Assembly (NCBI RefSeq): GCF_036370855.1
Contig: NW_026991398.1
Location: forward strand, 1,736,001 to 1,800,000
Direction of reading: 5' to 3'
Length of the DNA: 64,000 nucleotides
Source of the DNA: Dromaius novaehollandiae
Lineage: Eukaryota > Chordata > Aves > Casuariiformes > Dromaiidae
Numbering within the stretch: the first letter of the stretch is position 1; each line of letters starts with the position of its first letter. Below the pieces are notes generated by a model that saw nothing but the letters and a program-made list of their open reading frames with translations, was not told the DNA's origin and ran no database searches. This document shows positions 4,860 to 64,000 of this stretch, in pieces. The translations under genes and the position numbers were made by a program.

Positions 4860-5525
4860 CATGTAGAGAGAAGGAAGTGACCTCACAGTCAGCATCAGAG
4901 CTGTATCCCCCTTTTTGGCCTATCGGGTACTCAGGCAGCAGTGACCTCACAATCAAGGGCCATGCCATGTGCCTGCTGCTGGCCTTTTGGGTACTGAGGC
5001 AGAAGTGGCATCACAATCAACATCCAAGCCATAAGCCTATTTCTGGCCTATCACCACCAGAGACTGAGGTGACATCACAGCTACCTACATGAGCCAAGAG
5101 CCTCCAGTTGGCCTAACAGCTCCAGAGAAATAAGTGACCTCTCAGTCAGAATCGAAGCCGTGCCCACTGCTGGCCTATCAGGTACTCAGGCAGAAGGGAC
5201 CTCACAAGCACAAACTTCTGTCTGCTTCTGGCATAGCAGGTGCTGTTGCAAAGACAATCGCACAATTAGCATCAACGCCATAAGCCTGTTCCTGGCCTCT
5301 GAGCAGCAGACACAGAGGAGACCTACAAATAATCTACATGAACCATAAGCCTGCCGTAGGCCAATCAGCTTCAGAGAGAGAAGTGACCTCACAATATGTA
5401 TCTAAGCCATGTCCCTGCTGCTGGCCTATCAGGTACTCATGCAGAAATGACCTCAGAAGTACAAACGCCAGCCATATCCCTGCTGCCACATGTCATGCGC
5501 TCACACAGAAGTGACCCTGTCATTG
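4860..5525 (+). repeat. 64-bp tandem array, copy A
   Basis: About eleven diverged units with a period near 64 bp. The recurring TGACCTCAC-type core, or a variant of it, starts at 4,878, 4,942, 5,006, 5,070, 5,135, 5,197, about 5,253, 5,319, 5,384, 5,448 and 5,512. Each unit also carries a GGCCTATCAG or CCAATCAG-like box and a GGTACTCAGGCAGAAG-like segment. The same unit forms a second array at 23,946-24,560 and occurs as isolated units near 21,165 and 57,800. Confidence 0.8.
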
Positions 5526-10469: not shown

Positions 10470-11405
10470 TCATTGCTGCTGAACTAGTATCAAGTGAATC
10501 AGTTTCTTCAGTGCCTGTTTGAGCTCCTTGTTCCTCATGCTGTAGATGAGCGGGTTCACTGCTGAAGGCACCACCGTGTACAGAACAGTCACCACCAGAT
10601 CCAGAGATGGGGAGGAGATGGAGGGGGGCTTCAGGTGGGCAAACGTGCCAGTGCTGACAAACAGGGAGACCACGGCCAGGTGCGGGAGGCACATGGAAAA
10701 GGCTTTGTGCCGGCCCTGCTCAGAGGGGATCCTCAGCACAGCAGTGAAGATCTGCACGTAGGACACCACAATGAAAACGAAACACCCCAAAGATAAACAG
10801 GCACCAACCACGAGAAGTCCCACTTCCCTGAGGTAGGCATCTGAGCAGGAGAGCTTGAGGATCTGGGGAATCTCACAGAAGAACTGGTCCACTGTGTTGC
10901 CTTGGCAGAGTGGTATTGAAAATGTGTTAGCAGTGTGCAGGAGAGCACAAAGAAAACCACTGCCCCAGGCAGCTGCTGCCATTTTGACACAAGCTCTGCT
11001 GCCCATGAGGGTCCCGTAGTGCAGGGGTCTGCAGATGGCCACAAAGCGGTCATAGGCCATGACTGTGAGGAGATAAAACTCTGCTAGAAATAAAAAAAAG
11101 AAGAAAAATATCTGGGCAGCACATCCTGAGTAGGAGATGGCCCTGGTGTCCCACAGGGAATTGGTTATGGATTTGGGGACAGTGGTGGAGATGGTGCCAA
11201 GGTCGAGGAGGGAGAGGTTGAGGAGGAAGAAGTACATGGGGGTGTGGAGGTGGTGGTCGCAGGCTACGGCTGTGATGATGAGGCCATTGCCCAGGAGGGC
11301 AGCCAGGTAGATGCCCAGGAAGAGCAGGAAGTGCAAGAGCTGCAGCTCCCGTGTGTCAGCGAATGCCAGGAGGAGGAACTCGTTGAGGGAGCTGCTGTTG
11401 GACAT
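10470..11405 (-). CDS. Olfactory receptor, OR14-like, 311 aa
   Basis: An intact single-exon class A GPCR of the olfactory receptor family, expected to bind odorants at the cilia of olfactory neurons and signal through G-olf. Visible hallmarks are an NSS glycosylation site at residues 3-5, LLGNGL in TM1 (residues 38-42), PMYFFLLNLS in TM2, MAYDRFVAIC at the end of TM3 (116-125), KAFSMCLPHLAVV in TM6 and NPLIYSMRN in TM7. Length equals that of the two plus-strand ORs. The start at 11,405 is chosen over an upstream in-frame ATG at 11,513 because it aligns with the start of the paralogs and a likely splice acceptor lies between the two. The DRY motif reads DRF, as in its paralogs. The FFFFFF run in TM3 is unusual but shared. 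The family assignment (bird-expanded OR14-like) is by recognition; the exact orthology is not determinable here. Confidence 0.93.
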   Translation of the reverse strand: MSNSSSLNEFLLLAFADTRELQLLHFLLFLGIYLAALLGNGLIITAVACDHHLHTPMYFFLLNLSLLDLGTISTTVPKSITNSLWDTRAISYSGCAAQIFFFFFLFLAEFYLLTVMAYDRFVAICRPLHYGTLMGSRACVKMAAAAWGSGFLCALLHTANTFSIPLCQGNTVDQFFCEIPQILKLSCSDAYLREVGLLVVGACLSLGCFVFIVVSYVQIFTAVLRIPSEQGRHKAFSMCLPHLAVVSLFVSTGTFAHLKPPSISSPSLDLVVTVLYTVVPSAVNPLIYSMRNKELKQALKKLIHLILVQQQ

Positions 11406-11428
11406 TTGCTTGCTCGAGGCTTTGTGGA

Positions 11429-11452
11429 CTATCCAAGGAGGAAAAGATAGTG
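11429..11452 (-). other. Probable 3' splice site before OR start
   Basis: On the minus strand a pyrimidine-rich stretch (CTATCTTTTCCTCCTTGGATAG) ends with AG at 11,430-11,429, 24 nt before the ATG. OR genes commonly have a 5' UTR intron ending just before the start codon. The other two intact ORs have acceptors at equivalent places. Confidence 0.5.
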
Positions 11453-12188
11453 TCGGGTTAGAACAGCCTTCTCTGAGCCAAACCCATTCTGTTTCCCATA
11501 GAAACCCCTGCATTTCCTCTGTCCTTTACCTTCATTCAGCTCCCTTTCTGGAGCTCTGTTTGCACTGGCTGACTGTGCTGTGCAGAGCAAGGGCCTCTGC
11601 CCGTGGGCTCCAGAGGAGTCAGCCCTGTTTTGCTGGGGGGTGTAAATAGAGTTGTCAAACTGACCTTGCTATGTGGTGGGATACCTGGGGATGGGTGCTG
11701 GGAGCAGGGGACTTGGTCCACGTACCAATATATTGGGGAATATTCTCTATTTACCACAATGAGAGCTGAACACAGCTCTCATGCCAGCTGTATCTGAAAG
11801 AGAAGATATACATCTCTGCCAGCCTTGTCCTCTTGAACAGAGGTGTCTGTGTCTGGATCAGTCACGCCAACTCCCACTCCAGGAAGGCAGAGAAACAGTC
11901 AAGTGAAGGCAGGGGGTGCCTGACCCTTTCTCAATGTCTCTGTTCCAATGAGATAGACCCTGTCCTCACACCAGTTTACCATCTGCGCCCTTCCTCCAGG
12001 CACTGAGGAGAGAATGGGAAGTGATTAGCTCTGATGCACACATCCTGCAGCAGAATATGTCCACCCCATGTGTGGAAGGGCTGGTCAACATTTGGAAACC
12101 CATTTTTCTCTGCAAAATGATCAGTGGAGGAGTCTGATGATATATTGATATGCATATATATATACAGAGATATATATATATAATGGTG

Positions 12189-17374: not shown

Positions 17375-17640
17375 AAGTTCAGAAGGATCTTGAGGAACTC
17401 GGGTGATTTGGACAACAGGTACCTCATGAAGATTTACAAGAGAAGTGTCAAGTCCCGTGCATAGGCAGGAACAAACCTGTCCATGAGGAGAGGTTGAGGG
17501 ACCTGGGCTTCTTTAGCCCGCTGAAGTGCAGGCAAAGGGCAGTAGAATAGGAGCCTGTGACTGCTTGAAGGGTGGTTTCAGGCATGATGGAGCTTTTCTT
17601 GGTAGTGGGAAACAGCATGAGAAGGGGAAAGAGCCACAAA
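17375..17640 (+). mobile_element. CR1 LINE 3' fragment within segment S
   Basis: The translated pieces (EERLRDLGFFSP-like, then a stretch around the 'ggtggtttcaggcatgatgg' region) are the C-terminal CR1 ORF2 pattern. The equivalent DNA is at 53,500-53,690 in the same orientation and, inverted, at 30,490-30,750. The right-hand retrovirus is inserted in the homologous stretch (target equivalent at 17,614-17,619). Confidence 0.6.
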
Positions 17641-20600
17641 CAGTAGCTTGAGAGATTCTGACTGGACTTCAGGTAAAAAGAATGTGACTCCTAGGGTAGT
17701 GCTGTGGTGCAACAGGTCACCCAGAGGGAGTCTGTGATCAGCCCTTGGCTTTGTGTTTCAAGGGAAAGCAAGTGAGGACAGGGAGACATCAGGAGAGGTC
17801 GGGAGATCCCGGGGTGAGAGCAAGGTGGGGAAGCAGGCCGGGTATCTACAGTCTGCAAGGAAACAGGCACAGGCGTGGGAAAGCATAGGATGGCCCGAGG
17901 TGGAGATGGCTGAGTGCCAGCAGAGCCAGGTCTTTGTCCTCTTGGCTATGGCTGGTGTCTCTGACACCGAGGCCCATGAGAAGGCACCATTCCTTAAAGC
18001 ACTGTGGCCTTGCTGCCTCCTTGTTCCTTGGGAGCCCAGGAGGTGCCGTATCATGGTCCTGCACTCGGCATTGCACACCCCCACCCGCACACTGTCCCCA
18101 GGAAGAGCCCTGAGCAATGCATGATGGAAAGGATCACCTTGCCCAGGGGCTGGCTGTCAGTGCCTGGCTGCTCTGCTTGACAACACACATCCAGGTTGAC
18201 TTGGCATCACAGCCACCTGCACATTGCCTTTGCCTACCTGCAATCAGGGCCTCCAGCTTTCTGCTCTAATCAGCCCCTGGGGAGACTTTGTTGGTAATTG
18301 TCCTCAGTGGGACCTGTTAACACTCCAAGAAACTTGGGATTTGCTTCTGACTTCAACTTCTTGAGAGGTTTCTTCAGTCTCTTCTCAGCATCTGTGGTTC
18401 ATGGGCTCAGCACCAAATACACCCGAGGGGTCATTAAAATGCAAAAAACCCTAAGGGGCCATGACTCTCTGCATAATTTTCTTCAGTTCTTGAAGTCTCA
18501 TGTGGCTAATTGGGAAGCTTTCAGGAGAGTATTGAAATTAGGCAGATTTCAAAGAGCACCTGAAAACAAACGATGTCTGCTTCTTAAGCTTTCTTTATTC
18601 TTCAGTTCTCAGAATAAGCGATACCTACATTCTCCAATTCATACTGACCCACTGGGTCTCCTAATGAAGCCTGGACATACAGGAAAAGCAGTATTTTTGA
18701 TAAGAGAAATGTACGGACAACCTTCCTCCCCACCTCCCCAGCCCTTACAGTTCCCTCATCAGCCACTGGGGACTTAGAGCACTCTGGTTAAAATCTAAGC
18801 TTTTTCCTCTCAGGTCTGTAGCTCAAGGTTACAGCTCATGTGCACCAATTCCCACCTGCCTTCCTTAGCGTCTCAGCTGCAAACAGGCACAGAAGGATTT
18901 GTCTTAACTGCAAACAAACAAAATAAAATTTGAAAGTGTCATAAGAAGTAAAAGACACTCCTCAACTGTATGTCAAGTCCAAGCTGCCTCCAGTGAGCTC
19001 CACTTCCCACAAGACATAACCTTCCTTGAAATGTTTTCAACAGATATATAGGAAAGGATAGACAAGAAGCAGAACAAAGGAGCTGGCTAAAGAGATGCTG
19101 AGACTGCTGAAAGACGAGGCAAGCTTCAGGCTCCCAGAAGCTCAGAGCAGCAACTGGAAAGTTGAGAGGTATCTGAATGATAAAGAGCAAGGGGAGGAGG
19201 AATACTGTGAAACTATGGAAAGTGCATATGTCCAGAGAGTCTGATGCAAAGATGATTTTAGAAATGACCAGTTTAATCAGATCATGTGGAAATATGTGAG
19301 AGATCACTGAGATTACGTCCACAGCCTAATAGACAGAGCAGTGGAAACACAAGGTCAAGGGCTGATCAATATTTCTTCTCCCAAGTTCATCACCTTTCCT
19401 GAAGATTTCCACTCTTTCATCAAAGCAAAACATTGACATTAAAATTAGTCAATCATTTGAGCTGATGAAAATGGGCTCATATTTTTGAAATGTTGAAAAC
19501 AATTCTTCACCTTTCCAGGTCAAGCTCAGGTGTCCAGTCACAAGCACCCAGTGGCACTTGGAGAGGCCCTGGTGTCTCTGAGGGACCTGGCTGGGCCTGG
19601 CAGCTCTTGCAGGGGACCTGCAGGAGACTGGAGCCCCTCGGATCTGCAGATGGAGGCTGGGCATAGAGGGCCAGGGCACCTGCAACGGCACCATCTGTCC
19701 ATGACCCTGTGACTGCATCCCACCCCAGCTCTGAAAATCACTTTCCCAGTTCAATAAGAACACAAAGATGTTTCAAAAGCTGAAAGATGTAAGAAAATTT
19801 TTTTTTTTGCTTTAGATAATTTATTTAATTCCTTTCTTCTTTCATTTCTATTGACAGTTCCTGAAGATACCTTTTATAATAACGCCTACACTATTAAAAA
19901 TACTATTTTTGTGTCTTGCACAAGTCCAGCATCCCTCAAACCACTCCCTGCCCAGAATCTTCCTTGCCATATCTCGCTCTTTGCACACAGTGAGTTGTAG
20001 CGTGAGGTGTCACCTGCTCACAGCTGATAGAGGAAAGCAGGCTGACCAGCTTCAATAAAATGCTTTTGTTATCGATGGCCTAATTTGCACAAATCTCAAT
20101 GTACCTGTGTTACAGTAACATCTTAAAGGAGTCCCTACACATCTAGCCACTCTCCCTTTTCATTCTCTGTATGGTCATGAAGTGTGACTCCATTTCAGGT
20201 GACAACAGGGATGGGAATTATCTGATCTGATGTTGGACGCCTGCAGTGCAGATGTCTCTGGGTAATCCAGTTGTCTGGACTTCCCTTTCTAGTCAGTGGA
20301 AAGAAAAAAGTTGTCCCACTGAGAGGTCTGGAGATGCTTCTCCTGGTGACCAGCTAATGCTCCAGAAAGGTTCTCATGGTTCCTGGGTCACATTTCCTAG
20401 CACCACATGGGAACACAGCTACACAGGGCATCTCAGGCAGCAGTGGCCTCTGTATGTATCTCTAAAGGCCTGAATGTAAAGTTCCCGTCATTGGGTGAAA
20501 TCTGTGTCATGAATAGCTCTGTGCAAGAACTGAAACAAATCTTTGTCTTCAGAACTTCAGACATATCAATTCTAATGCATAATTTCTTTCCTTCTGATTG

Positions 20601-23945: not shown

Positions 23946-24560
23946 CCGAGGCTCCTGCTGGCCTATCAGCTTCTCACCCAGAAGGCACCTCACAGGCACC
24001 TTTACAGCCAGGAGCCTGCTGCAGCCCTCGAGGCTGCTGGGACAGGAGGGACCTCCGAGTCAGTTCCCAGCCAGGTGCCAGCTGCTGGCCTGCCAGCTGC
24101 TCTGTCTGCAGTGACCTCACAAGGGACTTCCCAGGCAGGGGCCTGCTGCTGGCCTATCAGGGACTCAGAAGGAGATGACCTCACAGTCCCCTTCACAGCC
24201 ATGTGCCTGTCACTGCCCTACAAGTCTCTGAGACAGCAGTTACCGCACGATAACTTCCCCAGCCATGAGCCCAATCCTGGCTTATCAGCTGCTCAGGCAG
24301 AGTGATCTCCAAAGCACATGTCCCAGCCGAGGACCTGCTGCTGCCCCAACCACTGCTCAGCTGGAAGTGACCTCACAGTCACCTTTCCAGCCACAGCTCT
24401 GCTGCTGTCCAATCAGGTAATCGGTCACAAATGACCTCATCATCAACATCCAAGCCTTGCTCCTGCTGCTGGCCTATCAGCTACTCCACCACAAGTGACC
24501 TCACCATCAACAGCTGAGCCACAGGTCTCCTGCTGGCCTGGCAACTACTGACTAAGAGCT
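23946..24560 (+). repeat. 64-bp tandem array, copy B
   Basis: About nine to ten units with a 64-bp period. TGACCTCAC-type cores or variants start near 23,984, 24,048, 24,112, 24,176, 24,239, 24,302, 24,368, 24,432 and 24,496. Units contain CTGCTGCTGGCCTATCAG-like sequence, as in copy A at 4,860-5,525. The array starts where homology between the inverted arms ends and stops at the edge of a CpG island. Confidence 0.8.
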
Positions 24561-25840
24561 GATTTGACACTGGGGATCTCCTGGCCCAGCTCTCGCAGAC
24601 AGCCGTGACCTCCCTGCCCACAGCCCGGCCACATGGCTATTGCCGCCTGCAGCTGCCCCTGCCTCCCCCAAGGCTCAGCCAGCTCCTGAGCGGCCACCCG
24701 GACTCACCCCGGGGCCTCGCAATGCTCATTGGGCAGTGAAACACCCGCTACGGACCAGTTACTGCCCCCAAAGCAGCTGGTCCGGGAAAGGCTGGAGAAG
24801 GGGTCTGTGACCCAGTGGAGGGGCAAAGCTTCCTGCCCCCAACCCCCCCCAGCCACCCCGGCCCAGCTGCTCGGGGGCAGCCGGCACGTCTGGCTCGCAG
24901 GGCAGCTCCCCCGGGGCCAGGGCGCTTTGTCCCGTGCTCCCGGCCCCACCAGCCCCTGCTGCAGCTCCGGGAGGAAAGCAGCCCCGGGGCAGCACCACTG
25001 CCCCCACCCCGGCGGGAGGGCACCTGCCACCATCGGGACGCGCTCACAGCCCCGCCAGCCCCGCTTGCACCTGCTCTCACCCTGCCTCTCGCTCCCGCTT
25101 TGGTCTCACCCTGCTCCCAGGGCTGGGTTTTTCCACATGCTGCACTCCGATTGGCTGACAGAGCCACCAGTCAAACCCAGCCCAGCCCCCCTCCTCACAG
25201 CAGCCAATAGGAGGCAGCACTGGGGCGTTGCCGGGGAAACATTGCAGCCTTGCAGCCTCCTGCCCTGGTGGTCAGCTCTGCCCCTCCCCTCCCCCCCCCC
25301 CCCCCCCGCAGTTGGGCGCCATGTTGTGGGCGGCAGCGCGGGGTGCGGCAGGGCCTGGGGGCAGCCCGGTGCCATGTGCCCAGGCAGTGCGGGGCCCTGG
25401 GGCCCAGCCGCTGCCCTGCAGGGTCTGGGCTCTGCCGCAGGGGTCCCGCGGGGCTCCTGGCTGCCCTGCACCTGGGGGCCGTGCCGGGCGCAGGGGAGCA
25501 GCCCCGGAGCCGGTGCTGGTGCGGGCCCTGGTGCCGGTGCGGGGGCCCTGGGCATGGCTGGGGTGCCGGAGCCTGCGGGCAGGGTCCTGCTGCCCCAGGG
25601 CAGGGCCGGGTGGGGCAGGGCAGTGTCCTCTGTCCCCTGGGGCCCGGACACCCTGCCCTTGGCAGCCCCGGGGCTCGGCAGCCCTCGCACTGCGCCCGGC
25701 AGGGCTGGGCCACAGCCAGGCAGGGGCTGCTCTCTGCGGGGCCGGGCTGGGCCCTGGCGGATCACTCCATAGGGCTGAAGAGCCCATGGGGGCACAGGGC
25801 AGCAGTGGGGGATAGCGATGGGGTGACCAGCTGTGGGCCT
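24561..25840. promoter_or_regulatory. CpG island, promoter-like, copy 1
   Basis: Very GC-rich and CpG-rich relative to surroundings. It contains inverted CCAAT boxes (CCGATTGGCTGAC near 25,147 and GCCAATAGGAGG near 25,204), a C17 run (25,291-25,307) and a conserved GCGCCATGTTGTGGGCGGC segment at 25,316-25,334. All but the C-run recur in copy 2 at 40,590-41,430. The combination resembles a housekeeping-type pol II promoter with a first exon. No splice donor or recognisable protein follows. The transcription direction is unproven; the conserved ATG suggests plus. Confidence 0.5.
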
Positions 25841-28590: not shown

Positions 28591-30489
28591 CTTGTGTTCT
28601 TATCTTTCTTTGCTTTATTGTCTTATTTTTTTAATATACTGGTCTTTTGGGGGAATTTTTTTTTTCCTTTGGAAAGGAAAGGGGTTTTCAGAACTGGGGT
28701 GGGAATGCAGTGACAGTGTCATGGACATCTGGTGCCATTGCAGGTGCCCTGGTACCCTCTGCAGTTTTGAGGGGCTACGGTCTTCTGCAGGTGAGAGCTG
28801 TGAGAGCTGCCAGGCCCTGGCCAGTACCTGACATGCCCCAAGGCCTCTCCAAGTGCCACTGGGTGCTGGTGGTTGGACACCTGAGTTCTGCCTGGAAAGC
28901 TGAAGAAAGAACTGTTTTCAACATTTAGAAAGTATGAACACACTTCCATCAGCTAAAATGACTGACTAACTTTAATACAAATGTCAATGTTTCCTGAGAT
29001 GAAATAATGGAAATTTTCAGGAAGGATATGAAGGAAGGGTATTTCAGGAAGGGTGTGAGTAGCAGCAGAAGAAATACTGATAGGCCCCTCAACTTGCGTT
29101 ACCACTGCTCTGTCTAATTATGCTGTGGATGTAATCTCAGGAATCTCCCACGTGTTTTCACATGCCCTGATTAAAAGAATCATTTCTAAAGTTCCCTTTG
29201 CATCAGACTATCTGGACATATGCACTTTCCACAGTTTTCCACTTTTCCTCCTCCGCTTGCTTTGTATCCATTCAGATACCTCTCAGCTCTCCAGTTGCTG
29301 CTCTGAGCTTCAGGGAGTCTGAAGCTTGCCTCATCCTTCAGGAGTCTAGTTGTCTCTTTACTAGCTCCATAGTTATGTTTCTGTCTATCTTTTCCTATCT
29401 ATCTGTCTAAAACATTTCTAGGAAGGTTATTCCTTGTGGAAAGTGGACAGCAGTGGAGGCATCTTGGGCTTAATGAGCATACAGTTCAGGAGTATTTCTG
29501 GTGTTTAATTAAACTGTTTCATTTTTTATTTTTGTTTGTAATGAAGAGAAATCCTGCTGTGTCCACAGCTAGTTCTCTAAGGAAAGCAGCTGGGAATTGG
29601 TGCATAGGAGCTGTAACATTCAGCTACAGACTCAAATGAGAAAAGGTTAGATTTTTAACAAGAGTAATGTAAGTCCCCAGTGGCTGGTGAGAGAAAGGGC
29701 AGGGTTGGGGCGGGGTGAGGAGGAAGGTGGTCCATACAGGTTTCCTGTCAAATGTGTTGCTTTTCCTAGTCATCCAGACTTCATTAGGAGACCCAGTGGG
29801 TCAGTATGAATTGGAGAGTGTGGATATCACTTATTTTGAAAGCTGAAAAATAAGTAAAACTTCAAAAGTAGAAATTCCTTTTTTTTTTCTTTTTCTTTTT
29901 TTCTTTTTTTTTTTTTTAGGTGCTCATTGAAATCTTCCTCTTGTAAATACACTCCCGCAACCTCTACAATTAACCACACAGGATTTGAAGAACTGAAAGA
30001 AATTATGGTCAGTGACATGGAATGTTAGGGCTTTTTGCGTTTTAAGGACCTCTCTGGTGTATTTGGTGCTGAGTCCATGAACCTCAGATACTGAGAGGAG
30101 ACTGAACAAACCCCTCAAGAAGTTAAAGTCAGAAGAAAACGTCCAAGTTTCTTGGAGGACAAAGACCTCGGCTCTATTGGAGGCTTTCAGCCTTGGCAGT
30201 CCCCTAGGCTGTCTTCACCACTGTCCTGTGCTGTGCTGCACCTGTGCCTCTTTCCCTACAGTCTCTAGACACCCAGCCTGCTTCCTCACCTTGCTCTCAC
30301 CTTGCGATCTCCCCACCTTTACTGATGTCTCTCTGCTCTCTCTTGCTTTTTCGTGAAACACAAAGCCAGGGGTTGATCACAGACTCTCTCTGGGTCACCT
30401 GTAGCACTACAACACTACTCTTCAAGTGACATTTCCTTTTCCTGTTACATTTGAACCCACAAGCTACAGTTTGTGGCTGCTTGGCCTTC
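28591..30489 (-). repeat. Segment S, copy 2 (inverted relative to 17.6-19.8 kb)
   Basis: Matches 17,700-19,800 in inverted orientation and 59,220-61,440 in direct orientation. Landmarks are the TG-rich block near 28,719-28,949, the AT-rich block at 29,100-29,640, a T-rich run at 29,880-29,920 and the region near 30,000-30,120. Open frames are short and differ between copies; no gene recognised. Confidence 0.7.
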
Positions 30490-31640
30490 TCATGCTGTTT
30501 CCCACTACCAAGAAAAGCTCATCCCTGAAACCACCCTTTAAGCAGTCATAGGCTTCTAATCTACTGCCCTTCACCTCAGCTTCAGCAGGATGAAGGAGCC
30601 CAAGGCCCTGAACCTCTCCTCACGGATGCGGTTATTCCCCTCTAGGTACAGGACTCGACACCTCTGTGCAAACCTCCCTGAGGTGTCTGTTGTCTGAATC
30701 CCCCAAGTTTCTCAAGGTCCTTCTGGACTGAAGCTCCTCTCTGTCAAAACCAAAACCAAACAAAATGAAACCAAACAAAGCAGTGCCACTGGGGAAAGGG
30801 TAAGCAGGGGTGGGCTGGTTGTATAGGAGGGGATCAGGATGGTAAGGGACACAAACTTGGAGGGGGCAGGAAGGAAATTAAAAGTGAAGCAAAGGATTGA
30901 TCACAGCTATTTGGGGATTCCTGCCAAGAAGCCCTGTATGGGAACACATCTGACTGGAGGAGGACAATAGAGCTGATCTACTTCCACTGTCACAGGAAAC
31001 CTTTGTGTTTTCCCCGACATCAAAGAACGAAGACCCAGAGGGGGAAGAATCATGGAACTCCTTCAGGGTGGAAGGAACCTCAGGAGGTCTCCAGCCCAAT
31101 CTCCTTGCTCACAGCAGGGTCAGCTCTGTGGTCAGATGAGGTTGCTGTGGCTTGATTCAGCCTGGCCTTGGAAACCTCCAAGGCAGGAGACTGCACAGCC
31201 TCTCTGAGCAGTGCACTCCAGTGCTTGACCATCCTCTTAGTGGAGAAGCTTTTCCTTGTCCCCTGCATGAACATCTTTTCTTTCAACTTATGCCCATTGC
31301 CTCTTGTCCTCCTGCCATGCACCCTGGTGAAGACCCTGGCTGCATCTCCTTGATGACCTCCTTGTAGCCACTGGAAGGCTGTTATGAGATCCCTCCAAAG
31401 CCATCTCTTCTCCAGGTTGAACAAGCCCCATTTCGTCACAGAGCAAGTGCTCCAGCTCCCTGATTATCTGGAGGACCCACCACCAAACTCGTTCCCAGTT
31501 ATCAACCCCTTTCTTTTTCTGGGGACCCAAAGATAGATGCAGTATACATGGTCTAATGAATACTGACTTGAGGGGGGATCATCATGCCCCTCGACCTCCT
31601 GGCTGTGCTCCTGGTCATACAGACCCCATAGCAGGTAGCA
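30490..31640 (-). mobile_element. CR1 LINE 3' fragments
   Basis: Inverted counterpart of 16,580-17,640. The minus strand has a GELEHLLCDEMGLVQPGEEMA segment and a GTRKSFSTKRMVKHWSALL segment of the CR1 C-terminus (31,080-31,530). A second CR1 piece lies at 30,490-30,750, joined by an A/C-rich spacer. The uninterrupted sequence cttctcatgctgtttcccac at about 30,487-30,506 is the unoccupied equivalent of the retroviral insertion site at 61,457. Confidence 0.75.
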
Positions 31641-47480: not shown

Positions 47481-50180
47481 TGGGTGATCCCACCACATCT
47501 CAGTTCTTCCAATGATGTTGCAGTCCTGTGACAGCTTGTGCTCTTGGCTGTGCTCCAGGCTGCAGGCATTTGCATGTATTTGGGCTACAGAGCCTCAGCT
47601 GTGGCACAGAGAACAGATTGGTCATGGTGAGACATATTAGCAAGAGCCAAGGACACTGTGTGTACAATGGCCCCACTTCAGAGCAGAGATATGCTGGCAC
47701 AGATAGCAGATGGTAATGTAATGGTGAAAGGAGGTTCCCACTAAGAGAGCAAACCCTGCAGTGCCCAAGGCCAGGCAGAAACAGAGCTGGGCTGTGCGAG
47801 AGGGGTTTGCTGCCTGAGCCGACTCTGCAGCAGTTTGGGGCCTGTGGCAAAGGTCAACTGATCTCCAGGCAGGAGAAGGTGCCACTGAAGAAAGTCCCTG
47901 GGCCTGAACAGCTTGTGATCCAGCCACCCTGAGGTCATCATTAGCCCATTCCCTGTTCACAACATCCAGGGGTGAGAAGAGGTTCAGGGAGAGGAGAGCA
48001 AGAGGGTTTGAGAGTGCAGAGACTACAGCGAAACCTTGGTATGATGGGCCTCCTGTTTATGCAGCACACTTGAATGTAGCTGGGATGGACTTGGCCTAAA
48101 GGCAGTGGTGGGATCCAGTTGTTTGGGCACAGGTAGGAAACCTGAGGGGCCCTGGGGCACTTGCCCAGCACCACTCCAAAGGGGCGAAGTTTTCCTGTAG
48201 GTGCCATGCTGTATGTGCTAGAGACATGTGGTTGTGCTGGACACCCCAGGCATCAGATATGATCCCTACCTATGGCCTATCTTATGTCATTAAATCACAT
48301 GTCTGCACTGAATTCTGTTAGCTTTTGGGACTGCAGAGGTCTGCCTGTGTCTCTGCTTCACAGTGAGTGGAGCTCTAGTAGTAGCAGTAGGCATCCAGTG
48401 TCATTCCAGAAGGCCAAGGAAACTCCCCACCTGCCCCCCACCTGATGTTCTGGAAGGATGGGGGTCTCCTAGTCACTCAGACAGAGCAAGCAGACACTGG
48501 CACATGCCTTTAACCACGTCTGTCTCGTCAACTGTTACCAGGTGTTTGTGTGTGGGCAACTGACTCATTCTCCCTCTCCAGTGATTATAACGGGAGCTTA
48601 GACAAGGAGCTCCCATGCAGACCTCTGTGTTGTGCTCACTTCAGTTTTGGCAAGGGCAATCCCACCTCCTCTGTGTCTGTGGAGTTCACAGGAGAGATCT
48701 GAATCCCACTCTAGCCCAGCGGCTTCTAAACCAGCGTGTGATGTCCAGATTGACTCATCTGAATCAACACGCGAACAATGTGTCAATGACCTCCCTTCTT
48801 GTCCCCATCGAGGTGTCCTGCCTAGTTAAGAGATAGGAATAGGGGCTTCCAGAGTGGGACATTTCCACCTATCATAGATAGTCACCCTCTGATGAAACAA
48901 GTTGCAATGCTGGAATAAGTTTCTCTGCACTCTTTAGCAAAGGACAAGAGGTGATTATTTTAGTTTACTTCAGGGAACATTTCCCAGGAGGAGGGAGCAC
49001 AAGGGACAGAGAAATTCAGGCCTTCAGCTGGGCCCCTGCTCCTGAGCAGGGCCAGGCTCCTGGGATGGAGGGAGCTCACTGCAACCTGGCAGCACTGCCC
49101 AGAGACAGCTGTGTGCAGGAGCAGCTCCTCTGCAAAGAGCATCAGGGCTGCGGGCACTGCCTGCTGCTGCTGACAGGAGATGAGAGAAGGCAGGGAGAAG
49201 TGGAAGGCAGTGTGGAGTGGGAGGACAGAGGAGAGCTCCTTGTGGGGGAAATCTTCACAGCCCTTGGCATGGTAAGTCTCTGGCTGTACAGCAATATTAT
49301 TGAGGTTCCTGGAGGGGTCTTCTGAACCCAGCCCATCCCATGACTGATAGGCTTTTTAAGAATTGCTCTCCCTGTTCTTCTGGTGCATAAGAGGAGGAGA
49401 TCCTTTAGAGCAGGGATTCCCTGCCTCAGCATCACAGGGACAGGGCACGCTGCTCCCTTCTGCCTGTGAGGGTCAGCACTCAGCCTGCCCAGGGAGCTCC
49501 CCACGGTGCTGCAGGACAAAGCTCTGGGTGAGAGGAACAACCACCAGCAGGCAGGTTCGTTCTCCCACCAAGAGGGTGCTGCATGGGTCAGGGCTGCTCA
49601 CAGCTCTAGCTCATGCACAGGAGATATCCGAGAAGCCTTTTCAAGAGGCAGATCAAGAGGAGGGCTACTTGAAAGAGAAGGAGCTTTCCTTCAGGTGTCT
49701 GTGCTTTCAGTTTTCTCCCTAATTTTGGCAGAGACAAAAAGAGAAAGAGTTTCCTGGTTTGGGGAGGAACTGGGACTCCTAAACCTTCACTCTGCAAGAT
49801 TAATAGGGACAGCGAATCTGTTTTTCTCGAGACTCACAGTAGAAATGCCAAGGATTTCTTCTTCGAGGAACAATCCCCAGGGATGACAAGGACATCTAGT
49901 AGAAAATAAACACCATTTAAAAATCCCTAAAACTCTGTTTCTCAACGCTCATTCTCTATAATACAGAGTGAAAGTGCTGAAAAGCTCTTCCACATGTTGG
50001 GTGGAATTCACCTGACAATAATTGTGAACGTCAGAGCAGCACACTCAGCCAGTGCAAAGTGGAGCTGAAGCAAGGCAGCTGCACAAAGATCGTCTCGGTA
50101 AAGAGGGGCAATGTGGGGGGTTGTATGAGAATGGCAACATTTGGGGGAGGGGGTTGCCTGAAGATTCTCCCCTAACTTGT
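47481..50180 (+). repeat. Upstream flank of OR at 50,229
   Basis: Direct relative of 31,641-35,497, shorter by about 1 kb, and inverted relative of 11,430-15,500. The block 48,950-49,260 corresponds to 32,870-33,180 and 13,475-13,700. No exon can be placed. The OR promoter should lie in it or beyond. Confidence 0.6.
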
Positions 50181-50204
50181 CAATGTCTTTTCTTCTTTGG
50201 ACAG
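50181..50204 (+). other. Probable 3' splice site before OR start
   Basis: The tract caatgtcttttcttctttgg followed by ACAG ends at 50,204, 24 nt before the chosen ATG. The spacing agrees with the other two intact ORs. Confidence 0.6.
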
Positions 50205-50228
50205 TCCCCCATGCCTGGAGAGAGCAAA

Positions 50229-51164
50229 ATGTCCAACAGCAGCTCCCTCCACGAGTTCTTCCTCCTGGCGTTTGCAGACACACGAGAGCTGCAGCTCTTG
50301 CACTTCTCGCTCTTCCTGGGCATCTACCTGGCTGCCCTCCTGGGCAACGGCCTCATCATCACAGCCATAGCCTGCGACCACCGCCTCCACACCCCCATGT
50401 ACTTCTTCCTCCTCAACCTCTCTGTCCTGGACCTTGGCTCCCTCTCCACCACTGTCCCCAAATCCATGGCCAATTCCCTGTGGGACACCAGGGCCATTTC
50501 CTACTCGGGATGTGCTGCCCAGGTCTTTTTCTACCTCTTTTTACTTGCAGCAGAGTTTTATCTCCTCACAGCCATGGCCTATGACCGCTTCATTGCCATC
50601 TGCAGACCCCTGCACTATGGGACCCTCATGGACAGCAGAGCCTGTGTCCAAATGGCAGCAGCTGCCTGGGGCAGTGGTTTTCTCCATGCTGTGCTGCACA
50701 CTGCTAACACATTTTCAATACCACTCTGCCAAGGCAATGCCCTGGACCAGTTCTTCTGTGAGAATCCCCAGATCCTCAAGCTCTCCTGCTCAGACTCCTA
50801 CCTCAGGGAACTTGGGTTTCTTGTGGTTGGTGCCTGTTTAGTCTTTGGATGTTTCATTTTCATTGTGGTGTCCTACGTGCAGATCTTCACTGCTGTGCTG
50901 AGGATCCCCTCTGAGCAGGGCCAGCACAAAGCCTTTTCCATGTGCCTCCCGCACCTGGCCGTGGTCTCCCTGTTTCTCAGCACTGTCATGTTTGCCTACC
51001 TGAAGCCCCCCTCCCTCTCCTCCCCATCTCTGGATCTGGTGGTGGCTGTTCTGTACTCAGTGGTGCCTCCAGCAGTGAACCCCCTCATCTGCAGCATGAG
51101 GAACAAGGAGCTCAAGGATGCCCTGAGGAAACTGGTTCAGCTGGTACCAGTTCAGCAGCTATAA
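50229..51164 (+). CDS. Olfactory receptor, OR14-like, 311 aa
   Basis: An intact single-exon odorant receptor, closely similar to the OR at 35,563. NSS glycosylation site at residues 3-5; LLGNGL in TM1; PMYFFLLNLSVLDLG in TM2; MAYDRFIAIC at the TM3 end; KAFSMCLPHLAVV in TM6. TM7 reads NPLICSMRN, so the Tyr of the NPxxY switch motif is Cys at residue 288, unlike both other intact ORs; this may weaken activation. In-frame ATGs upstream at 50,211 (6 residues more, downstream of the splice acceptor) and 50,052 exist. 50,229 is preferred because it aligns with the paralogs, though 50,211 remains possible. It is the second gene of a tandem pair with period about 14.7 kb. Confidence 0.92.
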   Translation: MSNSSSLHEFFLLAFADTRELQLLHFSLFLGIYLAALLGNGLIITAIACDHRLHTPMYFFLLNLSVLDLGSLSTTVPKSMANSLWDTRAISYSGCAAQVFFYLFLLAAEFYLLTAMAYDRFIAICRPLHYGTLMDSRACVQMAAAAWGSGFLHAVLHTANTFSIPLCQGNALDQFFCENPQILKLSCSDSYLRELGFLVVGACLVFGCFIFIVVSYVQIFTAVLRIPSEQGQHKAFSMCLPHLAVVSLFLSTVMFAYLKPPSLSSPSLDLVVAVLYSVVPPAVNPLICSMRNKELKDALRKLVQLVPVQQL

Positions 51165-52740: not shown

Positions 52741-53690
52741 ACAGCCATCTTCAAGAAGGACAGGAAAGAGGATCTGGGGAGTGATGGGCTGGTCAGTGTC
52801 ACCTCAGTCCCTGGGAAGCAAATCTTCCTGCAGCTGGTTCCAGCCACATGAAGGGGTCGGGAACAGCCAGCTTGAAGTCATTGAGGGCAAATTGTGCCTG
52901 GCTAAGCTGACTGCCTTCTGTGATGGGATGACTGGCAGTGTGGACAAGGGAGTGCAGTGCATGCACTCCTCAAATGTAGGGAGGCCTTTGACAAGATCTT
53001 CCATAACGTCTTTGTAGCCAAACTGGGAAGAGGTGGGATGGAGGAGTAAGCAATGGAGGGTGTGGGAAATGAGCTGGAGGCTGCCTGGCTCAAAGGGTGG
53101 AGAACAGTGGTACAAAGCCGAGGGGCCTTGAAAGACTTGGGGATTTGGCTGACAGAAACTTCATGGCGTTGTACAAGGAGAAATGGCAGGTGCTGTTTAA
53201 GAGGGGGCAGAACAGCCTGTGCATGAGGACAGGCTGGGACTTGACGGGTAGAGGAGTGACCCTGAGGAGAAGGACCTGGATGTTGCAAGAGATGCCACAT
53301 GAGCCAGTGCTGCATGCTCACCATAAACGAGGCCAGTTGCATACGGGGTGGCATTGGGAAGTGAGCGGCCACCCAGACAAGGTGAACTATTATCCCCCTC
53401 GTCTCAGCACTGGTGTGGCCACATCTAGAATAGGGTGTCCCAGTGTGGGATGCCCTGTGCTGGAGGAATGGGGAGAAACTGGAGAGGGTCCAGAGGAGGT
53501 CAGCAAAGGTGAGGTTAGAGGTCTAAAGGACAAGGCCTTTATGGAGAGGCTGAAGGACCTGGGTTGCTTTAGCCTGGGGAAGGGGAGGCTGAGGGCAGTC
53601 GAGTAGGAACCTGTGACTGTTTGAAGGGTGGCTTCAGAGATGATGGAGCTTTTCTTGGTAGTGGGAAACAGCAAGAGAAGGGGAAAGCCA
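52741..53690 (+). mobile_element. CR1 LINE fragment
   Basis: Plus-strand pieces resemble CR1 RT (a LTAFCDGMTGSVD-like stretch followed by an RPLTRSS region) and, from about 53,250, the ORF2 C-terminus (RTWMLQEMPHEP and EEWGETGEGPEEVSKG-like residues, then LKDLGCFSLGKGRLRA). Broken by several frameshifts. Its 3' portion (53,500-53,690) is shared with segment S copies. Confidence 0.65.
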
Positions 53691-54348
53691 CAAGCTGCAG
53701 CTTGTAGGGCTCAGCTGTGACATTAGGAAAAGGAAATGTCACTTGAAGGGTAGTGCTGTGGTGCCAGAGGTCACCCAGAGGGAGCCTGTGATCAGCCGCT
53801 GGCTTTGTGTTTCAAGGAGAAGCAAGTGAGGACAGGAAGACAGCAGTAGAGGTGGAGACATCCCGGGGTGAAAGCAAGGTGGGGAAGCAGGTTGGGTGTC
53901 TACAGTCTGCAGGGAAACAGGCACAGGTGTGGGACAGTGTAGGACAGGCTGTGGTGGAGGTGGCCAAGGACACTGCCAGGGGTAAAAGCTCCCAACAGAA
54001 CTGAGGTCTTTGTCCTCTTTGCGATGGCTGGTGTCTCTGCCACCAAGGCCTCTGAGAAGACACCATTTCCTGAAAGCACTGTGGCCTTGCTGCCTCCTCA
54101 TCCCCAGGGAGCCCAGGAGGTGCTTTATCATTGCCCTGCACTTGGCGTTGCACACCCCAACCCTCACACTGCCCCCAGGAAGAGCCCTGAGCAATGCATG
54201 ATGGAAAGGATCACCCTGCCCAGGGGCTGGCTGTCAGTGCCTGGCTGCTCTGCTTGATAACACACATCCAGGTTGATTTGGCATCACAACCACCTGCACA
54301 TTGCCTTTGCCTGCCTGCAATCAGGGCCTCCAACTTTCTGCTCTAATC
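53500..54348 (+). repeat. Segment S, truncated copy 4
   Basis: Direct match to 17,470-18,275, and inverted match to the end of the right arm (60,780-61,457). It is cut at 54,348 after 'tttctgctctaatc', exactly where the LTR-like element starts. In the left arm the equivalent sequence continues as 'agcccctggggag'. Confidence 0.75.
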
Positions 54349-61457: not shown

Positions 61458-61687
61458 TGTAGGGAACGGCGATCGGAAGATCTCGCGATGGCACGGAAAG
61501 AGGAAGGAAGAGGAAGGATATGACGTAGAGATAGCAGTATGCTTGTAGGTATATAAGCGAATGCATACGTACAATAAACGCCATTTGTAGCATCCTCATA
61601 TTGGTGTCAGTGCTCATTGGCCCGGAGGCAGGGGGAGCCTCCGTGCCGTCTCAGGCGGACGGGAGATTGTCGCATCAGAAGGCGACA
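61458..61687 (+). repeat. 5' LTR of endogenous retrovirus, 230 bp
   Basis: It begins TGTAGGGAACGG and ends GGCGACA, giving TGT/ACA inverted ends. U3 is GA-rich with a TGACGTAG CRE-like site (61,521-61,528) and a TATATAAG box (61,550-61,557). The poly(A) signal AATAAA (61,573-61,578) comes before the R region, which begins near GCCATTTG at about 61,580. AATAAA placed upstream of R followed by GCCATTT, and then an ATTGGTG element, is the arrangement of avian leukosis-type LTRs. Only the 5' copy is in the window. Confidence 0.85.
61521..61578 (+). promoter_or_regulatory. LTR promoter core and poly(A) signal
   Basis: A CRE-like TGACGTAG, TATATAAG about 25-30 nt before the expected RNA start, and AATAAA just before R. 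All three basic elements look intact, so transcription from this LTR is possible in principle. Confidence 0.65.
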
Positions 61688-61689
61688 AG

Positions 61690-61707
61690 TGGTGACCCCA
61701 ACGTGAT
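61690..61707 (+). other. Primer binding site, tRNA-Trp type
   Basis: TGGTGACCCCAACGTGAT begins two bases after the LTR. It differs at one position from the tRNA-Trp primer site used by avian leukosis/sarcoma viruses. The two-base gap between LTR and primer site also fits that genus. Confidence 0.9.
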
Positions 61708-61749: not shown

Positions 61750-63291
61750 ATGGACGCGGTACTTAAGGTTGTACGTGTGGGTGCCCGGGAATGGGTGCTC
61801 TCTATGAGAGTGGATGCAGTTGCGAACTGCGTCGGGCGGCTCCTGAAAGATGGAGCGATAGTTAGAACAGGGGACATTTTTTCCCCTTCTAACTGGGAGA
61901 AGTGCACTCGAGCGCTTGCTCAGAGAGCTACGGCCACTAAGAAGGCCGCAGGGCTTAAGACGTGGGGAGACATAACGATCATTTTACAAAGGACTAGGGA
62001 GGAGCTTGAGACCTGGCAGGCTGCCCACGCGGCGCTGCACATGTCCGCGGAAATGGCGACACAGACAGCAGCAAACGCAGAGGAGCGAACGGAGGTGATA
62101 GAGGGAGAGACGATAGTAGGGGATGAAGTGAGAACGGAGAATGTGGAAACAGACATAAAGGAGGAGGCGGTTTATCAAGAACCAGAGCGGGGAGAGGGGG
62201 AGGCAGAAACTCCAGAGGCTTACCCAATAATGCCCTCTTCTCCGCCACCGCCGCGGTATCCGTGGAAAGAGATGAGGGCGATGGAAGGGGGAGAACCAGG
62301 AGAACCAGGAGAACCAGGAGACCTTTGTGGAGACCGAGATATGAAAAAGCCAGAGGCGGGTAGAGGAGAAGAAAGCAAGGTGAAAGTGGAGGAGGCAGAA
62401 GAAAAGGAAAGACCGCTTATAGTGGATGATCCCCGAGACTGGCTGCCGGGGGCCATGATTCGGGTGCAGTGGGAGGACGAAAGAAGAGAAGAAGCAGGGG
62501 AAAGACCAGAAGCAGGGGAAAGACCGAGGGTGCCGCACCCGGGGAAAGATGGCGCTGGCCGAGAGAGGAGTGGGCGTCGACCAGCATTGCGGAAGGAGGG
62601 GACTGAAGACTCAGGCACAGACTCTGACTCTGACCCCTTAAAAGGAATAACGACGAAGATGCAGCAACTAGGGCGGAGTTCCCCGCTGCAGTCAGAGGCG
62701 GGAGGAAAAAAGGGGAGGAAAGTCACAAGTTTTGTGACAGGCTACAGGCAGCAGTAGAACTTGGTAGAACTTGCATCTTTACCAGACGCTGCAAAAGGAG
62801 CGGTGATGTTGGAATGTAGCAAACAACAGGGCAACGAGTTGACAAAAGAAATCCTAAGAACAGCGCCTAAGGGAGCAAGTCTAGGGCAGACGATCAAGTA
62901 CATATTAGAACACCGGGACAAGACCACAGCCCTACAGATTGCTGCAGCAGTTATGGCAATGCCGGAGGTTAGAGCTAGAGGAGGTCCAAAAGGAGGCCCA
63001 TGCTTTGGCTGCGGGCAAATGGGCCATTTGAGAGCACAGTGCACGAATAAGGGAAGTTACGCGCGCCCAACAGGGGGTATGGGGAGCCTTACATGCTGGG
63101 CCTGTGGAAAACCAGGACACAGAGCACGAGATTGTCGGCGGTCGGGAAACGAGAAGCGGGGAGGGCAACTAGGGGGCCACCCCTCCCCGGTGAGCCGGCC
63201 TCAAGTAGCCCCTGTCAACAACAACACACCGCTGATGGACAGCTCCAGCGACCAAACTCCGAAGGGAAACCCCGTGTGGCCCTGGTCTTAG
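61750..63291 (+). pseudogene. gag: Endogenous retroviral gag, defective
   Basis: The frame starts with a well-placed ATG (A at -3, G at +4), only 42 nt after the primer site. Residues 1 to about 150 resemble a matrix domain. Residues about 165-170 contain a PPPPRYPW proline cluster where a late-budding motif would sit. Residues 181-189 are three GEP triplets from a 9-bp tandem repeat, and EAGERP is duplicated later. A long, highly charged stretch follows, with no recognisable capsid N-terminal domain. Sequence resembling the capsid C-terminal part begins around residue 326, and a UAG stop interrupts it at 62,755-62,757. The same frame then continues (LVELASLPDAAKG and onward) into two CCHC zinc knuckles at 63,001-63,042 and 63,094-63,135 and stops at 63,289-63,291. 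With the stop and the capsid loss it should not form normal particles. Confidence 0.85.
63264..63270 (+). promoter_or_regulatory. Putative gag-pro minus-one frameshift site
   Basis: GGGAAAC lies in the X XXY YYZ register relative to the gag frame (G GGA AAC), 18 nt before the gag stop codon. A minus-one slip here enters exactly the frame that encodes the protease. Possible downstream stems are CCCTGG (63,280-63,285) with CCAGGG (63,336-63,341), and GGTCT (63,284-63,288) with AGACC (63,303-63,307). These two are mutually exclusive in part, and the structure is inferred only. Confidence 0.65.
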
Positions 63292-63638
63292 GGTGTGAGA
63301 AGAGACCCCGAGTGAAAGCGCATCTGATAGGCCCACCAGGGGCGGGTCCTCCTAGCATCCCCTTAATAATGATGCTAGATACCGGGGCAGATGTTACATG
63401 TGTGCCCTCGTGGTTGTGGCCATCGAGTTGGCCAGCAAAAGTGGCAAGCTCGTTAGATGGAGTGGGAGGCAGGGCGGAGGCTATGATTTCTGAAGCCGAT
63501 ATCACAATTGTATTGGAGGACCCGGATAGGCCTGCTCAGATCATCCGTGTGCGGCCGTACATAACTGCCATAGGGGAACCATTGTTAGGGCGAGATGCCT
63601 TATTGCAAAGCGGCTTCCACCTGACAAATTTAGGGTAA
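63264..63638 (+). CDS. pro: Endogenous retroviral protease region
   Basis: Aspartic protease read in the minus-one frame relative to gag. The frame is open from at least 63,093 and overlaps the end of gag; the listed start is the frameshift site. The active-site triad segment LDTGADVTCVP starts at 63,375 (Asp at 63,378-63,380), and the conserved flap-distal GRDAL segment lies near 63,589-63,603. About 116 codons from the slip site to the TAA at 63,636-63,638, a normal retroviral protease length, with no stop inside. No dUTPase domain is present, unlike betaretroviral pro. It would cleave the Gag and Gag-Pro-Pol precursors if made. Confidence 0.8.
   Translation, partial: GKPRVALVLGCEKRPRVKAHLIGPPGAGPPSIPLIMMLDTGADVTCVPSWLWPSSWPAKVASSLDGVGGRAEAMISEADITIVLEDPDRPAQIIRVRPYITAIGEPLLGRDALLQSGFHLTNLG
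63626..63632 (+). promoter_or_regulatory. Putative pro-pol minus-one frameshift site
   Basis: AAATTTA in the correct register for the pro frame (A AAT TTA), followed three bases later by the pro stop TAA. The heptamer and the following GGGCCACTG segment resemble the gag-pol frameshift signal of avian leukosis/sarcoma viruses. A minus-one slip enters the pol frame. Confidence 0.8.
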
Positions 63639-64000
63639 GGGCCACTGCCTACCTCCTCGGGGCTCATTTCGCTGTCCCGCTGACATGGTGCTCCAATGAG
63701 CCTGTGTGGGTAGAGCAGTGGCCATTGACAGGGGACAAATTGGCGGCTGCCTGACAAATAGTAAGTAGAGAACTAGAGCAGGGACACCTGGAGGAAAGCC
63801 ACAGTCCCTGGAACACTCCTATATTTGTGATACACAAAAAGGACAAGTCTGAATTTCGATTACTGCACGACCTACGAGCGGTAAATCAGCAGATGGAAGC
63901 GATGGGTGCCCTCCAGCCGGGGTTGCCACTACCATCAGCAATACCAAAGAATTGGCCAGTGGTGGTGATGGATATCCAAGATTGCTTTTTCTCTGTACCA
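63626..64000 (+). pseudogene. pol: Endogenous retroviral pol, 5' part, interrupted
   Basis: The minus-one frame after pro encodes the beginning of reverse transcriptase: LTWCSNEPVWVEQWPLTGDK, then [29 protein letters not shown], and [14 protein letters not shown] with the first catalytic Asp of motif A at 63,972-63,974. A UGA stop at 63,752-63,754 interrupts the N-terminus. The frame is open from there to the window end. The YxDD box, RNase H and integrase lie outside the window. The stop should abolish a full-length product from this copy. Confidence 0.88.

What the first reader, a model, noticed from the sequence alone, without database searches (positions are those of the whole stretch)
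63264..63638. Retrovirus with an alpharetroviral LTR and primer site but two successive minus-one frameshifts (gag-pro and pro-pol)
Seen: gag, pro and pol lie in three frames, each minus one from the last. A register-correct slippery heptamer is present at both borders (GGGAAAC at 63,264; AAATTTA at 63,626). Known: avian leukosis-type alpharetroviruses encode protease in the gag frame and shift once, before pol; betaretroviruses shift twice. The LTR core, tRNA-Trp-type primer site and AAATTTA signal are alpharetrovirus-like. Inference: this element belongs to an intermediate alpha/beta lineage, or gained a second shift.
Basis: partly seen in the sequence, partly recalled or inferred. Interest (0 to 1): 0.75.

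Follow-up and report, generated by a model that had tools for sequence, protein, structure and literature searches.

The report
Alpharetrovirus-like provirus with two frameshifts
This is the first part of a broken retrovirus fossil whose matrix and protease resemble those of chicken leukosis viruses but which, unlike them, seems to have used two ribosome slips instead of one to make its protease and polymerase, a layout that some distant relatives appear to share.

Summary
It lies 8 nt behind the second nucleocapsid zinc knuckle and 6 nt before a strong predicted pseudoknot (0 of 3000 shuffles; 6 of 7518 window positions). Three of ten informative relatives (36-40% protease identity) also read this knuckle in the -1 frame in their pro ORF, with a Gly-Lys pair (as GGG AAA encodes) soon after it; one has it in the other frame. 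So a private one-base deletion is very unlikely. Matrix, capsid end and protease match alpharetroviral proteins best; pol could not be assigned. This copy is defective. A 2005 survey already counted -1/-1 frames among chicken 'alpha' and 'alpha-beta' ERVs, so the layout is not new. Other copies in the same genome could not be searched (19 calls unanswered).

The parts
61458..61687 (+). 5' LTR, TG...CA, about 230 nt; TATATAA 61550-61556, AATAAA 61573-61578
   Evidence: Start: three paralogous host blocks in the window align up to 61457 exactly and then run on without the LTR; end read from the sequence
   Evidence: read from sequence
61750..62754 (+). gag, first piece: matrix and acidic/proline-rich region; TAG at 62755-62757
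   Evidence: Pfam Retro_M E 5.9e-9; the only 4 solved chains matched are retroviral matrix/Gag, best 5kz9 E 9.4e-10; that these are Rous sarcoma virus-type is recalled
62758..63288 (+). gag, second piece: end of capsid plus nucleocapsid with two zinc knuckles; TAG 63289-63291
   Evidence: zf-CCHC E 3.3e-11; best solved chain 5a9e E 2.6e-9, residues 332-485 of it; neither gag piece matches earlier capsid
63094..63135 (+). second zinc knuckle; read as MLGLWK... in the -1 (pro) frame
63144..63150 (+).
63157..63213 (+). predicted pseudoknot: stem 1 63157-63165/63181-63189 (9 bp), stem 2 63172-63177/63208-63213 (6 bp), 6-nt spacer
   Evidence: 0 of 3000 shuffles, 6 of 7518 window positions, only 1 of 195 + strand heptamers
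63264..63270 (+).
   Evidence: weak in the wide scan, 22 of 200 shuffles
63051..63635 (+). pro ORF in the -1 frame to gag; protease domain about 63297-63623
   Evidence: RVP E 1.2e-11; MAV/RSV protease best solved relatives
63626..63632 (+). AAATTTA, pro register: pro-pol slippery site
   Evidence: same heptamer as ALV and RSV in Table 1 of PMC3835772
63640..63723 (+). long bulged stem (63640-63654 with 63708-63723, 15 bp) enclosing two hairpins, downstream of AAATTTA
   Evidence: MFE z -2.7 for 63638-63737, but -0.7, -0.9 and -1.8 for 50, 70 and 130 nt; pairs listed
63632..63751 (+). pol, first piece (start of RT), -1 frame to pro; TGA 63752-63754
   Evidence: 39-residue piece 63635-63751 matches only 7sr6, residues 44-69, E 7.6e-5
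63755..64000 (+). pol, RT piece, cut by the window's end
   Evidence: RVT_1 3.2e-6, bits below Pfam's cut-off; 7sr6 E 2.6e-28

Best explanation
This is the 5' part of a defective endogenous retrovirus from an alpharetrovirus-like lineage that expressed Gag, Gag-Pro and Gag-Pro-Pol by two programmed -1 ribosomal frameshifts. The first shift most likely happened on GGGAAAC at 63144-63150, right behind the second nucleocapsid zinc knuckle, stimulated by a pseudoknot 6 nt downstream. The second happened on AAATTTA at 63626-63632, at the end of protease (...TNL) and on the same heptamer as in ALV/RSV, with a long stem downstream. Shown: frames, heptamers, predicted structures, and a -1 pro ORF over the knuckle in three relatives. 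Inferred: that ribosomes actually slip at these sites, at what rate, and which gag-pro site dominates. The 63264 heptamer is probably secondary or unused.
For: Frames and registers. Pseudoknot at 63144: 0 of 3000 shuffles, 6 of 7518 positions on both strands of the window, only 1 of 195 + strand heptamers. Relatives: of 32 proteins found, 10 have 20 or more residues before the protease-start motif. Three of these 10 (P0004, P0006, P0013) match the window's pro-frame overlap with shuffle p of 0.002 or less; for the window's gag and third frames the lowest of the 10 are p 0.124 and 0.214. In the same three the +1 frame can encode the zinc knuckle: the strict motif in P0006 and P0013 (1 and 0 of 2000 shuffled peptides), the part that the ORF covers in P0004 (1 of 2000). 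A Gly-Lys pair follows it in all three. None of the 32 has a C-x2-C-x4-H-x4-C knuckle in its own frame. Pro-pol stem: z -2.7 over 100 nt.
Against: P0018, one of the 10, has the knuckle in the other shifted frame (+2); a decayed copy would look so, but it does not support the reading. The other six of the 10 show no knuckle in either shifted frame, probably because they begin downstream of it. With a looser knuckle motif 11 and 5 of 2000 shuffled P0006 and P0013 peptides pass. Relatives are known only as proteins from nearly all unnamed sources, so GGG AAA is inferred from Gly-Lys and the heptamer's last base is unseen. The wide structure scan was set up after I had seen the stem by eye, though shuffles and background used the same settings; it counts stacking only, no loop cost. 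Plain MFE folding behind 63144 is not unusual (z 0.2 to 0.5), and the unknotted best fold is another one. The pro-pol stem is unusual at one of four lengths. No other copy of this element in its own genome was seen as DNA.
Confidence: 0.75

Rival explanations
1. The gag-pro shift happens where the reader put it, on GGGAAAC 63264-63270, 18 nt before the gag stop, with a compact betaretrovirus-like pseudoknot (63279-63307); the 63144 heptamer is chance.
For: In register and close to the gag stop, P 0.011 by shuffling. The pseudoknot (spacer 8, stems 5 and 6 bp, loop 7) resembles the GGGAAAC betaretroviral ones of Table 1 in PMC3835772 (spacer 7, stems 6 and 6-7). 10 of 1000 shuffles and 94 of 4916 + strand positions reach it in the narrow scan.
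Against: In the wide scan 22 of 200 shuffles and 8 of 238 provirus positions reach it. None of 10 relatives has a possible XXX-YYY codon pair within 50 residues of the protease-start motif.
Confidence: 0.15
2. Both GGGAAAC sites are used, 120 nt apart, both moving ribosomes into the same pro frame.
For: Both are in register and each precedes a possible pseudoknot. A ribosome that passes the first site unshifted meets the second.
Against: The second has no counterpart in the ten relatives and only modest structure.
Confidence: 0.2
3. A private indel in this copy created the frame change; the ancestor had gag and pro fused as in ALV.
For: The copy is decayed (two stops, capsid loss).
Against: Three distant relatives have the same -1 overlap. 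P0001, 98% identical, is predicted as a separate 108-residue ORF that begins 20 nt past the gag stop codon's last base.
Confidence: 0.04
4. Recombination: an alpharetrovirus acquired a betaretroviral gag-pro border and thereby gained the second shift.
For: GGGAAAC is the gag-pro heptamer of 6 of the 10 betaretroviral rows of Table 1 in PMC3835772, while AAATTTA is that of ALV/RSV.
Against: Matrix and capsid end on one side and protease on the other match alpharetroviral proteins best; no dUTPase was found. A protease group with MAV and without the five dUTPase-bearing rows or MPMV has support 92/77, not starred.
Confidence: 0.06

Closest known systems
Alpharetroviruses ALV, RSV and MAV (genus Alpharetrovirus)
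   Same: Matrix family Retro_M, capsid end, protease ending ...TNL, AAATTTA pro-pol signal with a long downstream stem
   Different: Protease is in a separate -1 frame with its own slippery site; ALV/RSV shift once (PMC3835772), with protease in the gag ORF (PMC10820513 passage)
Chicken 'alpha' and 'alpha-beta' ERVs tallied by Jern et al. 2005 (PMC1224870)
   Same: Gag-Pro -1 in 4 of 6 alpha and 5 of 7 alpha-beta elements; Pro-Pol -1 in 10 of 13 and 5 of 9 (Table 1); the authors remark that alpha ERVs give -1/-1 instead of the expected 0/-1
   Different: No signals or sequences in the passages and sections I saw; whether this element belongs to one of those groups was not testable. Their alpha-beta group often carries dUTPase (21 of 67; alpha 0 of 34); none was found here
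Betaretroviruses (MPMV, JSRV, SRV, HERV-K10 and others)
   Same: Two -1 shifts; GGGAAAC plus pseudoknot at gag-pro in 6 of 10 listed
   Different: dUTPase in pro (PMC1224870 passage); MPMV protease is a weaker match, E 0.007 against 1e-8 for MAV
Unnamed viral protein V9P8D4 (BFVD, 148 residues)
   Same: Best structural match of the protease model in BFVD, 42% identity, E 4.3e-11, ahead of an avian myeloblastosis associated virus protease at 7.3e-10; its length would suit a stand-alone pro ORF
   Different: No name or organism was given; my guess that it is the pro of a lymphoproliferative disease virus of turkeys record is from memory and unchecked

Membership tests
Genus Alpharetrovirus | Alpharetroviral matrix and capsid end | tested here: met
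   Retro_M E 5.9e-9; best solved chains 5kz9 and 5a9e; a chain named Rous Sarcoma Virus Capsid Protein p27 matches at E 0.0056. That Retro_M, 5kz9 and 5a9e are Rous sarcoma virus-type is recalled
Genus Alpharetrovirus | Nucleocapsid closest to alpharetroviral nucleocapsid | tested here: inconclusive
   Matched within 5a9e (E 2.6e-9, capsid end included), but among separate nucleocapsid chains HIV-1 ones (E 5.6e-5) rank above 2ihx (0.0057; RSV as I recall) and 1cl4 (0.41)
Genus Alpharetrovirus | Protease closest to RSV/MAV | tested here: met
   Sequence E 1.1e-8 MAV against 8.5e-7 HTLV and 0.007 MPMV; structure: RSV and MAV chains rank 1-5 in PDB
Genus Alpharetrovirus | Protease encoded in the gag frame, a single -1 shift before pol | tested here: not met
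   Pro is -1 to gag and also in three relatives; so it is called alpharetrovirus-like, not a member
Genus Alpharetrovirus | AAATTTA at the protease-pol border with a long downstream stem | tested here: met
   ALV/RSV values in Table 1 of PMC3835772
Genus Alpharetrovirus | RT closest to alpharetroviral RT | tested here: inconclusive
   Best chain 7sr6, a HERV-K RT as I recall; no chain that I could identify as an alpharetroviral RT was among the 60 shown of 203; the fold of the 82-residue piece failed (pLDDT 41)
Genus Alpharetrovirus | tRNA-Trp primer site and alpharetroviral LTR core | not tested
   Sequence at 61458-61707 noted; the likeness is recalled only
Genus Alpharetrovirus | Alpharetroviral env; 6-bp target duplication | not testable with these tools
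   Both lie beyond the window end
Betaretroviruses | Two -1 shifts, gag-pro and pro-pol | tested here: met
   Frames and signals only, no translation assay
Betaretroviruses | dUTPase domain in front of protease in pro | tested here: not met
   Only RVP found in 63264-63635; the 71 codons of the pro ORF before 63264 were not scanned for Pfam families but overlap nucleocapsid
Betaretroviruses | G-patch after protease | tested here: not met
   Pro ORF stops directly after ...LTNLG; no G-patch family

The most novel reading that the evidence does not exclude
Two -1 shifts are the ancestral way of expression in the alpharetrovirus-like lineage, with the gag-pro signal inside nucleocapsid right behind zinc knuckle 2. 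ALV/RSV are the derived case: they fused gag and pro and so lost the first shift.
Probability: 0.45. Interest if true: 0.6.

Novelty: new member of a known kind. Interest (0 to 1): 0.42.

Why it matters
Expression layout is used as a marker in retrovirus classification (PMC1224870 section 9). An alpha-type matrix and protease expressed by a double shift would show that 0/-1 is not a property of the whole alpha-like lineage. It also offers a concrete, reporter-testable signal for asking whether ALV lost a shift or others gained one. The ratio of protease to Gag would also differ: ALV makes protease with every Gag (recalled), whereas here only shifted ribosomes would.

Tried and rejected
Own-genome search for other copies: the genome search did not complete in 19 calls.

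Scans for DNA of relatives found none: viral contigs with protease, RT piece and alignment A2; genome contigs with A1 and A2. A protein search with the second gag piece found none at E 0.001 among 104 candidates.

A first pseudoknot scan favoured 63264 with 0 of 200 shuffles and found none at 63144. Its loop settings were chosen after I had seen the 63264 knot by eye, and its stem and loop limits shut out the one at 63144, so I discount it. Without the tuned terms 63264 is 10 of 1000 and in the wide scan 22 of 200. The wide scan in turn was made after I had seen the stem at 63157 by eye.

An RSV-like second stem behind the 63640 stem was sought; only short candidates of 6-7 bp appeared, so none is claimed. 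In the wide scan the 63626 site's own best knot is reached by 27 of 200 shuffles.

The fold of the RT piece failed (pLDDT 41) and was not searched. Tree: separate-pro rows as one clade not rejected, p-AU 0.307, so ancestral or gained stays open; its bootstrap had not settled and many branches are long. I left out P0015, P0024, P0030 and P0033 (4 of 32 relatives) and P0003 (the window's own ORF) before building it.

Relatives against PDB: P0019 is clearly MAV-like (E 2.6e-35). P0007 is not clearly alpha: linked HIV protease dimers and RSV/MAV are level (E 3e-13 to 1e-12), MPMV 3e-8.

Bolisetty et al. 2012 (PMC3482500) is not held; seen only as a reference. Passages on LPDV in PMC4405500, PMC3790719 and PMC10861079 do not say in which frame its pro lies.

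Full report
What is there. The last 2.5 kb of the window is the 5' part of a provirus, cut by the window end. Of 10 long ORFs that I chose from the 30 listed, 2 are olfactory receptors, and direct and inverted repeats recur through the window, so the host DNA looks like a duplicated receptor cluster. No call names the host. Three paralogous host blocks align with this one up to 61457 and run on where this copy has the LTR, which puts the LTR start at 61458. The LTR is about 230 nt. No second copy of the provirus piece lies in the window.

Genes. The first gag piece (61750-62754) has the matrix family Retro_M. The second (62758-63288) matches the capsid end and nucleocapsid of a Gag structure (5a9e; Rous sarcoma virus as I recall) and has two zinc knuckles. 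Among separate nucleocapsid chains, HIV-1 ones rank above 2ihx, so the knuckles alone do not tell genera apart. The first part of capsid finds no match and a TAG separates the pieces. The protease matches MAV/RSV protease best by sequence and by predicted structure in PDB (pLDDT 86). In BFVD an unnamed 148-residue protein ranks first and an avian myeloblastosis associated virus protease second. Pol follows in a third frame, with a TGA at 63752. Its best solved relative is 7sr6, which I recall as a HERV-K RT. No chain that I could identify as an alpharetroviral RT was among the 60 shown of 203, so pol is not assigned to alpha or beta.

Frames. But GGGAAAC occurs twice in gag register, at 63144 and 63264, and both would lead into the same pro ORF.

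Which site. Behind 63144, after 6 nt, a 9-bp stem and a 6-bp second stem can form a pseudoknot with -38.3 kcal/mol of stacking (loop costs not counted). In the same scan 0 of 3000 dinucleotide shuffles, 6 of 7518 positions of the window on both strands, and no other of 195 + strand heptamers reach it. The knot behind 63264 is weaker (-23.0) and is reached by 22 of 200 shuffles. Spacer and stem sizes of both lie in or near the range listed for viral signals in Table 1 of PMC3835772. Plain folding without knots shows nothing unusual behind either gag-pro site.

Relatives. The protein searches gave 32 relatives of the protease, nearly all from unnamed contigs. Ten have 20 or more residues before the protease-start motif. 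In three (P0004, P0006, P0013) the upstream stretch resembles the window's pro-frame reading of the knuckle, e.g. MLGLW in both the window and P0013 (BLASTP against the three frames only, E 9e-6 to 2.5e-4; shuffle p 0.002 or less), and not its gag frame. Back-translation shows that the +1 frame of P0006 and P0013 can carry the whole C-x2-C-G-x2-G-H-x4-C knuckle (1 and 0 of 2000 shuffled peptides), and that of P0004 the part it covers (1 of 2000). Each has Gly-Lys a few residues on. P0018 has the knuckle in the other shifted frame and is the exception. The other six show no knuckle in either shifted frame and probably start too late. None of the ten has a possible slippery codon pair within 50 residues of the protease-start motif. 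P0001, 98% identical to the window, is a separate short ORF, which agrees but proves little.

Mechanism. Most likely ribosomes translating gag slip back one base on GGGAAAC at 63144 into pro, and a fraction of these slip again on AAATTTA at 63626 into pol. Behind AAATTTA a 15-bp bulged stem encloses two hairpins, recalling the long ALV/RSV structure in PMC3835772. Its z-score is -2.7 over 100 nt but only -0.7 to -1.8 at three other lengths. Slipping itself is inferred.

What is known. PMC3835772 (passages, section 6 part 2 and the tables section seen) gives one shift for alpharetroviruses and two for beta- and deltaretroviruses. PMC1224870 (passages and sections 5 and 9 seen) already reports -1/-1 in chicken alpha and alpha-beta ERVs by counting frames. 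PMC10820513 (abstract and passages) describes galliform ALV-like ERVs with protease in gag. PMC4272516 (passages) finds alpharetrovirus-related ERVs widely in birds at low copy number. In the titles and abstract starts listed by paper searches I saw no paper on the gag-pro signal of such an element. That is a search of listings only; most subscription journals are not in the library, nor is Bolisetty et al. 2012.

Position. A 31-row protease tree puts the window, the separate-pro relatives, P0009, MAV and P0019 together (92/77, not starred), apart from the five dUTPase-bearing rows and MPMV. MAV falls inside this group, but with weak support (90/66, 91/71), and holding the 17 rows taken as separate-pro together is not rejected (p-AU 0.307). 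For most of those 17 the separate frame is itself inferred from similarity. Since beta- and deltaretroviruses also shift twice, ancestral double shifting with loss in ALV is the simplest story, not a shown one.

Verdict. A real double-frameshift layout, very probably lineage-wide, in a defective alpharetrovirus-like ERV; the likely first slip site is corrected to 63144; the layout itself was already counted in print.

Noticed in passing
10473-11525 (-), 50028-51161 (+): Olfactory-receptor ORFs (7tm_4, E about 1e-48) in a region of direct and inverted repeats, many spaced 14-16 kb apart, so the provirus lies in what looks like a duplicated receptor cluster.
   Followed up: partly
4845-5455 and 23952-24567: Repeat family with a period of about 64 nt in two clusters (11 overlapping 105-nt copies).
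   Followed up: no
17614-18250, 53670-54327, 30155-30496: Three paralogues of the host block without the LTR serve as empty sites, so the provirus inserted in this block alone after duplication, or was lost elsewhere.
   Followed up: partly
62290-62319: In-frame Gly-Glu-Pro triplet repeated three times in the gag region between matrix and the capsid remnant.
   Followed up: no
P0022 and P0031: Retroviral protease ORFs named as Klebsiella pneumoniae proteins in public records, probably host DNA contamination of a bacterial assembly.
   Followed up: no
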